From assembly GCF_017052655.1 (NCBI RefSeq), contig NZ_JAFIDC010000001.1, positions 248,001 through 312,000 on the forward strand: a DNA stretch of 64,000 nucleotides. The letters run 5' to 3'. Below the pieces are notes generated by a model. That model saw nothing but the letters and a program-made list of their open reading frames with translations. It did no database searches and was not told where the DNA came from. Position 1 is the stretch's first letter; each line of letters starts with the position of its first letter. The stretch is from Acholeplasma equirhinis. Its GTDB lineage: Bacteria; Bacillota_I; Bacilli_A; Acholeplasmatales; Acholeplasmataceae. Positions 15,520 to 17,981 of the stretch are shown piece after piece. A program made the translations under genes and the position numbers.

Positions 15520-15541
15520 TATAATAGATACATAAGAGGTG
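15520..15541 (+). promoter_or_regulatory. Promoter and Shine-Dalgarno cut off from its gene by the IS
   Basis: TATAAT at 15520-15525 is followed by AAGAGGTG at 15534-15541, a good ribosome binding site, but no gene starts here. The IS110 element begins a few bases on. The aldo/keto reductase on the other side (17088) has no visible ribosome binding site, so these signals probably belonged to it. Confidence 0.45.
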
Positions 15542-15550
15542 ACTAACTAT

Positions 15551-15640
15551 TAAAAGTCAAGTACCTTTTGTAGATAAACAGTAAAAACCTCCTTTTGCTA
15601 ATTAAATTCGGAGGTTAGCTAGTATTACAGATGACTTTTA
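15551..15640 (-). ncRNA. Candidate structured RNA in the right (3') end of the IS110 element
   Basis: TAAAAGTCA (15551-15559) pairs perfectly with TGACTTTTA (15632-15640), a 9-bp outer stem. Inside it AACCTCC (15586-15592) pairs with GGAGGTT (15610-15616), a 7-bp stem, leaving a large internal loop between the two. Two stems around an internal loop is the shape of a bridge-RNA binding loop, and IS1111-type members of the family carry their RNA on this side. It could instead be a terminator-like barrier or a recombinase binding site. Confidence 0.45.
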
Positions 15641-15668
15641 CTTAACCGCCACAGTTTAAGTAAAGAGT

Positions 15669-16829
15669 TTAAATGAGTTTAGAAGAATCGAAATCTTCAT
15701 GATGTGTTTCAAGATGATGAATCACTCTGACAAGCTTTTTAGAAAGATGAATGAGTACGACACGGTGATGCTTACCCTCTTGTTTCTTCTTGGTGTAGTA
15801 GTCGTAGAAGATGGGGTTATAGATCATAACCATCATTGAGATATTGATGAGTGTTGCGCGTAAATACTTGCTACCGCGTTTGACGAGTTTTCCGGTCGAA
15901 GACATCGTTCCAGATTGTTTGATCGTAGAATCGAGACCTGCATAGGATAACATTTCAGAAGGATTAGAAAAAAGTGAAATATCACCATATTCTGAAATGA
16001 TGACAGCTGCTGAGATAACTCCAATACCTTTAATGGTTTGAATTCGTGTAGGATACTTACCCATTAAAGAAGTGATTTGTTTCTCAGTTTCTTCAATATC
16101 CATGTTAAGTTGTTCGACATAAGAAATCGAAGTTTTGAGTTTAAAGAGTTGATGATCTTGTGTGATACCGATGGTCGATGCTGCTAGAGTTTTCAGATTA
16201 ACAAACTTAGGATAACTGAATTTCCCCATCGATAATTTACGTAGTGTTTCAAAATGAACATCATTCATTTTTGCGATTCTTTCAGGTGATGAAAACTGCT
16301 TCAAAATGTATAAAGATGTATCACTATAGCCTTGTTCTCGCATAAAAGGCTTGAATTCAGGAAAGATAACATCTAAGACTTTAGTCATCATGTTGTAGTG
16401 TTTCGTCCGAATCGAGATGAGTTTGAAGCGTAACCTGGTTAGTGATTTTAGGGCACTTATATGATAAGATTGATGATGATAGGCTTTGTAGTCTACAGAT
16501 CTCATATAAGTTGAAATCATTTGTGCATCTTTCTTATCCGTCTTTGTTTTTCTTAGTGATTGGGCTTCTGAAAACTTCTTCACGAGAAAAGGATTAATCT
16601 CCATGAATGTATATCCATGGAAGGTAAGAAATGACTTAAGATTTTCACCGTAGTGACCTGTAGCCTCAAGGCCTATTATCATTTCTTGCTTGACTAAGGG
16701 TTTAAAGTGTCCTAATAGTTCATTAAACCCAGACTGACTGTTCTCAAATGAGAACTGTTGATCAACTGTTTCAGTGGCGATGAAACAGTCGTGCTTGTAC
16801 TTAGAAATATCGATTCCGATATAGATCAT
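15669..16829 (-). CDS. IS110-family DEDD transposase/recombinase
   Basis: 386 residues. RuvC-like N-terminal domain with the acidic tetrad: GIDISKYKHD (Asp), IGLEATGHYG (Glu), KTDKKDAQMI (Asp-Asp). The C-terminal transposase-20 domain has IKGIGVISAAVIISEYGD, the helix-hairpin-helix, then SGTMSSTGKLVKRGSKYLR with the conserved serine. A coiled helix region lies between. Length and all key residues are intact, so the enzyme looks active. The start ATG at 16829 has CTTAGGAGGTGT-like sequence (AGGAGGTG) just upstream on the minus strand. It works with an RNA guide in characterised relatives. Confidence 0.93.
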   Translation of the reverse strand: MIYIGIDISKYKHDCFIATETVDQQFSFENSQSGFNELLGHFKPLVKQEMIIGLEATGHYGENLKSFLTFHGYTFMEINPFLVKKFSEAQSLRKTKTDKKDAQMISTYMRSVDYKAYHHQSYHISALKSLTRLRFKLISIRTKHYNMMTKVLDVIFPEFKPFMREQGYSDTSLYILKQFSSPERIAKMNDVHFETLRKLSMGKFSYPKFVNLKTLAASTIGITQDHQLFKLKTSISYVEQLNMDIEETEKQITSLMGKYPTRIQTIKGIGVISAAVIISEYGDISLFSNPSEMLSYAGLDSTIKQSGTMSSTGKLVKRGSKYLRATLINISMMVMIYNPIFYDYYTKKKQEGKHHRVVLIHLSKKLVRVIHHLETHHEDFDSSKLI

Positions 16830-16876
16830 AAGTACACCTCCTAAAATTAAATGTGTACATGTGGTAAGTCCAGCGA

Positions 16877-16962
16877 GTCTTTATCTCATAATCATGTAAA
16901 AAGCGTCTTGCGCTAACTAACTATTGCTGATTAAAATAAAGACCGTGGTGAGCGTCACCTCT
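16877..16962 (-). ncRNA. Candidate bridge RNA in the left (5') end of the IS110 element
   Basis: Between the transposase start and the left end lies about 230 bp of noncoding sequence with nested pairing. On the minus strand the order is a hairpin GGTGA-loop-TCACC (16947-16959), then a stem of ATAAAGAC (16936-16943) with GTCTTTAT (16877-16884) enclosing a smaller hairpin AGCG/CGCT (16902-16905, 16911-16914). The loop segment ACTAACTATT (16916-16925) recurs exactly at the right junction (15542-15551), and seven bases of it at the left junction. This placement and shape agree with the guide RNAs of IS110-group elements. Confidence 0.5.
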
Positions 16963-17087
16963 AAACAGTCATAGCCGTATTACAATGACACAAATCCACA
17001 GTACATTATTAGTATATTAAATTAGAACGAAAGGAGTAAAGATTTAAATAAGTCTTAAGTACTAACTTAATACAGTTTAAATCTTAC

Positions 17088-17981
17088 ATGAATATAATGT
17101 TTAAATCTAAATTTTTAGAAGGTGTAGATTTATCAAAATCTAATGCAGTCTACACACTAAATAATGGTGTAAAAATCCCGGTTGTCGGTTTTGGTACTTG
17201 GCAAGTTAAAGATGGGGAAGAAGCATATCATTCTGTACTACATGCACTTAAGGTAGGTTACAGGCACATTGATACTGCAGAAGCATACAGAAATGAAGAA
17301 TCCGTTGGTAGAGCGATTAAAGACTCAGGTGTTCCAAGAGAAGAAGTATTTATTACAACAAAACTATGGAATAAGCATGCAACTTATGAAGATGCTAAAA
17401 AAGCATTTGAAGAAAGTTTAAAAAAACTAGGTTTGGACTATGTGGATTTATATATTATTCATTGGCCAAATCCATATATGCATCGTCCAAATTGGGAAGT
17501 AAGAAACAAGGAAGTTTATCATGCGATGGAGGATCTCTACTTTGAAGGTAAAGTTCGTGCAATTGGTGTCTCAAATTTTAGAGTGCATCATTTAGAGGCA
17601 TTACTTAAGACGGCAAAAGTGGTTCCAACAGTTAACCAAATTTTTGTTAATCCAAGTGATCAACAAGAAGAAGTTGTTTCATTTGGAGAAAAACATGGCA
17701 TTTTAACAGAAGCTTATTCTCCACTTGGTACTGGTAAGATTTTTGAATTAACTGAATTAAATGTACTTGCAAGTAAATACCAAAAATCAATCGGACAAAT
17801 TGTCTTAAGATGGAGTTTGGAACATGGATATTTACCACTTCCAAAATCTGTTACACCAAGTCGTATTAAAGAAAACCTAGAATTATTTGACTTCAAATTA
17901 GATGAAGATGATATTTTAAAACTAGATGAACTACATGGTGCATTTGGATTAACATCAGATCCTGATCAAGTAGACTGGTAA
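17088..17981 (+). CDS. Aldo/keto reductase
   Basis: A NADPH-dependent cytosolic reductase of the AKR5-like group (2,5-diketogluconate or methylglyoxal reductase type). The catalytic tetrad is visible: Asp and Tyr in GYRHIDTAEAYRNE, Lys in ITTKLWNKH, His in IIHWPNP; cofactor loops GVSNF and LPKSVTPSRIKENLELFDF. 297 residues is slightly long because of a 20-residue N-terminal addition. Neither ATG (17088 or 17097) has a ribosome binding site, and the IS110 element lies directly upstream, so its native promoter and perhaps its start were displaced. Confidence 0.85.
   Translation: MNIMFKSKFLEGVDLSKSNAVYTLNNGVKIPVVGFGTWQVKDGEEAYHSVLHALKVGYRHIDTAEAYRNEESVGRAIKDSGVPREEVFITTKLWNKHATYEDAKKAFEESLKKLGLDYVDLYIIHWPNPYMHRPNWEVRNKEVYHAMEDLYFEGKVRAIGVSNFRVHHLEALLKTAKVVPTVNQIFVNPSDQQEEVVSFGEKHGILTEAYSPLGTGKIFELTELNVLASKYQKSIGQIVLRWSLEHGYLPLPKSVTPSRIKENLELFDFKLDEDDILKLDELHGAFGLTSDPDQVDW

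What the first reader, a model, noticed from the sequence alone, without database searches (positions are those of the whole stretch)
16877..16962. Candidate bridge RNA in the left end of the IS110 element
The noncoding end upstream of the transposase folds into a hairpin plus an 8-bp stem enclosing a smaller hairpin, the place and general shape of IS110 bridge RNAs. A loop segment, ACTAACTATT at 16916-16925, is repeated exactly at the right junction (15542-15551), and its first seven bases recur at the left junction. Minus-strand AGAGGTGAC near 16956-16962 also matches the sequence flanking the right junction (15535-15543), though this overlaps the 5' hairpin. Random 10-base matches between two such stretches should be rare but not impossible.
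Basis: partly seen in the sequence, partly recalled or inferred. Interest (0 to 1): 0.75.

Follow-up and report, generated by a model that had tools for sequence, protein, structure and literature searches.

The report
IS110 bridge RNA targeting gene starts
The window holds a jumping gene (IS110 family) whose small non-coding "bridge" RNA carries short guide sequences matching the ribosome-binding site where the element sits and the element's own ends, so it very probably steers insertion to the starts of genes; this is a new, well-supported member of an RNA-guided system described in 2024.

Summary
Comparison with about 70 related elements gives a ~152-nt RNA (minus strand, 17005-16854): a closing stem, a target-binding arm and a donor-binding arm. 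The reported 16877-16962 is only the donor arm plus half of the target arm. The repeated ACTAACTATT is the left donor guide (LDG); AGAGGTGAC, noted as incidental, is the right target guide (RTG). The true left end is 17088-17090, not ACTAACT at 17061-17067. Structure (137 double-sided changes vs 45 shuffled), RTG versus target (6.0 of 7 nt vs 3.7 permuted, n=70), LDG/RDG versus donor ends, and three different guides in one genome all support base-pairing; the LTG match is weaker. The circle junction forms a TTGACT-17-TAAGAT promoter. The target is a translation start: insertion separated the Shine-Dalgarno AGAGGTG from the ATG of an aldo/keto reductase gene, as IS900 does. A further observation is speculative: elements that sever the SD carry an SD-like GAAAGGAG next to a hairpin facing the gene, possibly a replacement ribosome site. 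Expression, binding and recombination were not testable. New member of a known kind.

The parts
15542..17090 (-). IS110 element, 1549 bp, counting one core dinucleotide
   Evidence: identity to 75-92% relatives stops here at both sides
15669..16829 (-). IS110 recombinase, 386 aa, DEDD RuvC-like plus Transposase_20 domains
   Evidence: PF01548 E=1.2e-35, PF02371 E=1.6e-21; IS621 and ISCro4 in the PDB; D7, E55, D98, D101, S306, S320 invariant in 12 relatives
17089..17090 (-). left core dinucleotide CA
   Evidence: equals the right core
15540..15541 (-). right core dinucleotide CA
16854..17005 (-). bridge RNA, predicted about 152 nt, 5' end near 17005
   Evidence: 43-sequence alignment, 95% of structure cells paired, 137 double-sided changes
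17001..17005 (-). closing stem P1, 5' strand (UGUAC)
   Evidence: helix 1, pairs with 16854-16858; 3 of 5 pairs with compensatory change
16854..16858 (-). closing stem P1, 3' strand (GUACA)
16996..17000 (-). target-arm stem, 5' strand (UGUGG)
   Evidence: helix 2, 100% paired
16944..16948 (-). target-arm stem, 3' strand (CCACG)
16979..16995 (-). target loop 5' strand holding the left target guide (..GTCATTGTAAT), like the left target CATTATATT
   Evidence: association significant only with 1-3 nt of register slack
16965..16978 (-). target-arm apical hairpin ACGG/CUGU
   Evidence: helix 3; variants ACAA/UUGU, AUAG/CUAU, GUAG/CUAC
16956..16962 (-). right target guide AGAGGUG, pairs with CACCTCT of the target
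16935..16942 (-). donor-arm basal stem, 5' strand GUCUUUAU
16877..16884 (-). donor-arm basal stem, 3' strand AUAAAGAC
16916..16925 (-). left donor guide AATAGTTAGT, identical to the right end of the element
   Evidence: 6.83 of 7 matches, permuted 6.30, p<=5e-5
16902..16914 (-). donor-arm apical hairpin AGCG/CGCU
   Evidence: helix 5, 100% paired with GC to AU and UA changes
16892..16900 (-). right donor guide TTTACATGA, complementary to the left end CATGTAA
   Evidence: 4.83 of 5, permuted 3.68, p<=5e-5
15542..15560 (-). right element end TTGACTTTTAATAGTTAGT: donor half-site and -35 box (15555-15560)
17081..17086 (-). -10 box TAAGAT of the promoter made when the ends join in the circle (17-bp spacer)
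17011..17016 (-). -10 box TATACT of a candidate internal promoter (-35 TTTACT at 17035-17040), 6 nt before P1
   Evidence: weaker than the junction promoter
15535..15541 (+). target: Shine-Dalgarno AGAGGTG of the interrupted gene
17097..17981 (+). interrupted gene: aldo/keto reductase (named from its sequence, no family search run), start ATG 17097
   Evidence: uninterrupted orthologue in G001 reads AAGGAGGAAACATAATGTTTAAATC
17029..17036 (+). SD-like GAAAGGAG facing the target gene (speculative surrogate ribosome site)
17036..17087 (.). left-end hairpin / inverted repeat between the SD-like stretch and the element end
   Evidence: 35 of 37 distinct relatives fold with z<-2; no strand preference
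15583..15616 (-). terminator-like AACCTCC..GGAGGTT-TTT after the recombinase gene
   Evidence: sequence and alignment, by eye

Best explanation
The left end of this IS110-group element encodes a ~152-nt bridge RNA. Excision joins the ends and creates a TTGACT-17-TAAGAT promoter that would transcribe the left end (inferred); a second, internal promoter-like pair also precedes the RNA. In the RNA a 5-bp stem closes two arms. The donor arm recognises the joined ends (LDG AATAGTTAGT with the right end, RDG TTACATGA with the left end). The target arm recognises the insertion site: RTG AGAGGUG pairs over 7 nt including the CA core with the Shine-Dalgarno half (CACCTCT), and the LTG strand, containing CAU, resembles the start-codon half more loosely. 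The DEDD recombinase would exchange strands at the CA core, placing the element between a gene's Shine-Dalgarno and its start codon. Shown here: architecture, covariation of structure, of RTG with target and of LDG/RDG with ends, target identity. Inferred: transcription, binding, recombination.
For: Structure: 95.0% of cells paired, 137 double-sided-change cells vs 44.7 shuffled, slid controls at most 31; RNAalifold finds the helices other than P1 on its own. RTG vs target: positions 1-7 match 35,35,33,34,31,30,25 of 35 and fall to chance at position 8; n=70 elements 6.01/7 vs 3.71 permuted; one per distinct RTG n=34, 5.79 vs 3.54; within core CA 6.60 vs 5.06 and CT 5.39 vs 3.91, all p<=5e-5. 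One genome (G062) with three guides: GGAGGAG guide at 8 sites, all AGGAG with CT core; CGAGGTG guide at 4 sites, all GAGGTG with CA core; CTAGGTG guide at a TAGGTG site (counting the sites listed there). LDG/RDG vs ends p<=5e-5. Junction promoter z 2.93 on average, 82% above 2. Recombinase domains. Start codon within 14 nt of the core with an outward ORF in 56 of 70.
Against: No RNA data. A single-sequence fold is unremarkable (z -1.37). LTG association needs 1-3 nt register slack (p=2e-4); at single fixed registers it is weak (p=0.09 and p=0.003, uncorrected). LE starts were found by requiring the right-end core, so core equality and 2 of the 5 RDG bases are partly by construction in the automated set (it is visible without that). 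Relatives are not independent. The window's element is single-copy in its genome, so its own activity is not shown.
Confidence: 0.93

Rival explanations
1. The conserved left end is DNA only: recombinase-binding sites or 5' leader structure, and the matches to flanks reflect protein preference for gene starts.
For: The left-end hairpin at 17036-17087 shows no strand preference, as a DNA palindrome would; flanks are similar in all elements.
Against: Compensatory changes in five helices; RTG follows the particular SD register and sequence used by each element, including within one core class and one genome; donor strands covary with the ends.
Confidence: 0.04
2. A relic: the element once had a working bridge RNA but this single copy is dead.
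For: One copy in the genome.
Against: Recombinase ORF intact with invariant residues; all helices, guides, cores and promoter boxes intact in the window copy; guide still matches its own site.
Confidence: 0.15
3. The RTG and LTG match the flanks only because the guides were copied from the present site, not because they select it.
For: Guides and flanks match at a single site in most genomes.
Against: Identical guides sit at many unrelated sites that share only the guided motif (G062, and three copies in G010).
Confidence: 0.02

Closest known systems
IS621 bridge RNA (IS110 group; Durrant et al. 2024, PMC11208160)
   Same: left-end location, target arm before donor arm, guides including the core, promoter rebuilt at the circle junction, DEDD recombinase with detectable homology
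   Different: about 152 nt rather than 177; a closing stem P1 joins the RNA ends; core CA rather than CT; target is a translation start rather than a REP element; LTG register loose; a 5' stem-loop could not be assigned
seekRNA of ISEc21 and IS1111 elements (PMC11187229)
   Same: non-coding end supplies an RNA whose loops match target strands; circle with promoter
   Different: in the IS1111 type the RNA lies downstream of the recombinase gene (PMC11208160); here it lies upstream
IS900 of Mycobacterium avium subsp. paratuberculosis (PMC8141618, citing Doran et al. 1997)
   Same: IS110 family, inserts at translation starts; reported motif CATGNNNNNNTCTCCTT has the same order (start codon, spacer, SD complement)
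   Different: IS900 carries the antisense ORF hed; no antisense ORF of 80 aa or more here. I could not fetch an IS900 sequence to test its guides.
Phage T4 genes 38 and 25 (PMC3014915), for the speculative part only
   Same: a structure between SD and AUG restores a functional distance (27 to 11 nt in gene 25)
   Different: experimentally supported there; only a geometric resemblance here

Membership tests
[quoted passage not shown]
IS110 group (versus IS1111) | RNA in the end upstream of the gene; left non-coding end longer than right | tested here: met
   LE about 260 nt, RE 127 nt; RNA in LE
IS110 group (versus IS1111) | no long subterminal inverted repeats shared by the two ends | not tested
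   none noticed, but no dedicated search was run
bridge RNA | conserved structure with target loop then donor loop | tested here: met
bridge RNA | 5' stem-loop before the target arm, as in IS621 | tested here: inconclusive
   a strong left-end hairpin exists but the junction -10 box lies inside its first arm, so it would be only partly transcribed from that promoter
[quoted passage not shown]
[quoted passage not shown]
   association only with 1-3 nt slack (p=2e-4); fixed registers weak
bridge RNA | LDG and RDG pair with the element's own ends | tested here: met
bridge RNA | circle junction rebuilds a sigma-70 promoter | tested here: met
   sequence only: 60 of 70 have TTGACT and, 17 bp on, a -10-like hexamer; the LE pattern used to find the ends included the -10 variants
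bridge RNA | RNA is made, binds the recombinase and is needed for recombination | not testable with these tools
   no transcriptome or biochemistry
IS900-like translation-start targeting | insertion between a start codon and its SD in fixed orientation | tested here: met
IS900 | antisense hed ORF through the element | tested here: not met
   no antisense ORF of 80 aa or more

The most novel reading that the evidence does not exclude
This lineage separates a gene's SD from its start codon but carries its own replacement: an SD-like stretch (GAAAGGAG) on the strand facing the gene, next to a hairpin that ends 3-7 nt from the core, so that in mRNA the surrogate SD sits about 10-17 nt from the ATG. 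This would keep the hit gene translatable and make insertion into essential genes harmless. For: 54 of 54 elements that sever the SD carry a purine-rich stretch by a permissive pattern (34 of the 35 in the first set have a clear GGAG or AAGG), while 16 of 16 elements whose core lies inside the SD, leaving AGGAG with the gene, lack it; hits include ileS and pheS with no second full-length copy found. Against: the contrast is about one evolutionary change; the hairpin is no stronger on the gene-facing strand; no outward promoter signal, so transcripts would have to cross the element; several genomes are metagenome assemblies.
Probability: 0.3. Interest if true: 0.7.

Novelty: new member of a known kind. 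Interest (0 to 1): 0.47.

Why it matters
Bridge RNAs are the guide of a recently described RNA-programmed recombination system, and natural sets showing guide and target changing together are useful for learning the pairing rules. This family gives such a set: 34 distinct right target guides, three of them in one genome, with a 7-nt boundary of pairing. It also offers a guide-based explanation for the older observation that some IS110 elements (IS900) sit at translation starts: the target arm spells a Shine-Dalgarno and, more loosely, a start codon, sequences present at most genes. If the replacement ribosome site is real, it would show how a mobile element can use gene starts as safe harbours.

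Tried and rejected
Rfam scan: no bridge-RNA family hit in the window. Single-sequence folding gave no significance. A fixed-register LTG-target pairing was tested and not established. An outward promoter in the left end was tested and not found: mean z 0.45, 5% above 2. Strand preference of the left-end hairpin as evidence for a gene-facing RNA function: none. The essential-gene argument was checked for copies: metK (L082) has a second copy and the L007 protein is a PgsA-like paralogue beside a true PgsA, so neither counts; ileS (L184) and pheS (L080) do. The 'kept' label inside the 41-row clade is an artefact of my pattern (AG followed by G) and was not used. No covariance model was built and no structure prediction was run; they were not needed for the decision. 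Literature searches found no paper in this open-access library linking bridge RNAs to Shine-Dalgarno targeting; most subscription papers are not in it.

Full report
What is there. The window holds one IS110 element on the minus strand. Its recombinase (15669-16829, 386 aa) matches PF01548 and PF02371 and finds the IS621 and ISCro4 transposases among solved structures. Relatives at 75-92% DNA identity in the same family fix the ends: on the left, identity begins at CATGTAAG, with the core CA at 17089-17090; on the right, it ends at TTGACTTTTAATAGTTAGT, followed by the core CA at 15540-15541. The element is single-copy in its genome.

The target. Joining the flanks gives AAGAGG-TG-AATATAATGTTTAAATC on the plus strand: a Shine-Dalgarno, the core, a spacer, and the start codon (17097) of an aldo/keto reductase (named from its sequence). 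The orthologue in another genome of the genus is uninterrupted, AAGGAGGAAACATAATGTTTAAATC. The element therefore sits between a Shine-Dalgarno and its start codon. Among 70 related elements with both ends, 56 have a start codon within 14 nt of the core with an outward reading frame; several of the exceptions have an ATG just beyond that limit.

The RNA. Aligning the left ends of 43 elements, down to about 41% protein identity, gives one structure: closing stem P1, target-arm stem and apical hairpin, a donor-arm stem and apical hairpin. 95.0% of cells pair, with 137 cells changed on both sides against 44.7 in shuffles and at most 31 in slid controls; RNAalifold finds the helices other than P1 unaided. 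In the window the RNA spans 17005-16854.

The guides. Target arm, 3' strand: AGAGGUG (16962-16956) pairs with CACCTCT. Across 35 elements the match runs over exactly seven positions (35, 35, 33, 34, 31, 30, 25 of 35) and drops to chance at the eighth. With 70 elements it is 6.01 of 7 against 3.71 permuted; with one element per distinct guide (n=34) 5.79 against 3.54; also within each core class (all p<=5e-5). The anchors used to locate the RTG lie outside it, so this test is not circular. The guide follows the Shine-Dalgarno register: GGAGATG, GGGGTG, GAAGGTG, GGAGTTG, AGGAGAA, AAGGAG. In genome G062 three guides sit at three kinds of site. Target arm, 5' strand (LTG): usually contains CAU and resembles the start-codon side, but only with 1-3 nt of register slack (p=2e-4). 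Donor arm: LDG AATAGTTAGT equals the right end and RDG TTACATGA complements the left end, both covarying with the ends.

Expression. Joining the ends gives TTGACT-17-TAAGAT here and up to TATAAT in relatives; the junction stands out against shuffles (mean z 2.93), unlike the integrated right end (mean z 1.04). An internal TTTACT-18-TATACT lies just before P1 in this clade. Neither is shown to be active.

Comparison. This is the arrangement of IS621 (PMC11208160): left-end RNA, target arm then donor arm, guides including the core, junction promoter. Differences are the closing stem, the CA core, the loose LTG and the target class. Translation-start targeting has a precedent in IS900, motif CATGNNNNNNTCTCCTT (PMC8141618), which these guides would explain if IS900 carries the equivalent; I could not test that.

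A further observation. On the strand facing the target gene the left end has GAAAGGAG (17029-17036), then a hairpin ending near the core. All 54 elements that sever the Shine-Dalgarno have such a stretch by a permissive pattern; none of the 16 whose core lies inside the Shine-Dalgarno do. With the hairpin looped out the spacing is mostly 10-17 nt, near the arrangement described for T4 gene 25 (PMC3014915). Two insertions lie before ileS and pheS with no other full-length copy found in the assembly. But the contrast rests on about one evolutionary change, the hairpin favours neither strand, and no outward promoter was found. I hold this at about 0.3.

Limits. No expression or biochemical data; relatives are not independent; left ends in the automated set were found using the right-end core and a list of -10-like variants, so core equality and the junction -10 are partly by construction there, though plain in the unconstrained alignment; many genomes are metagenome assemblies.

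Noticed in passing
L193-L204 (genome G062): Twelve or more copies of these elements in one genome with three different target loops, a ready natural experiment on guide-target pairing.
   Followed up: yes
L095-L125 (Lachnospiraceae and relatives): In this sister clade the CT core lies inside the Shine-Dalgarno, so AGGAG stays with the gene after insertion; the guides are shifted accordingly (LTG contains CTCCT, RTG contains AAAG).
   Followed up: partly
L088-L094 (Anaerococcus): A related clade with the same right end appears to use sites that are not Shine-Dalgarno sequences (CTCCGC, CTCATCGG, CTCGTCAG).
   Followed up: no
17088-17090: The element's left end supplies an ATG in frame with the aldo/keto reductase (ATGAATATAATG), adding a possible earlier start.
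   Followed up: no
L045 766-3690 (genome G024): Two elements in tandem about 45 bp apart, the second matching only from within the left end or recombinase gene on, so its left end appears to be missing.
   Followed up: no
L184 and L080: Elements inserted before the start codons of ileS and pheS, with no second full-length copy found in those assemblies.
   Followed up: partly
17036-17087: Very stable left-end hairpin whose first arm (in the recombinase direction) holds the junction -10 box; conserved as a structure (35 of 37 relatives z<-2) without strand preference; role unexplained.
   Followed up: partly
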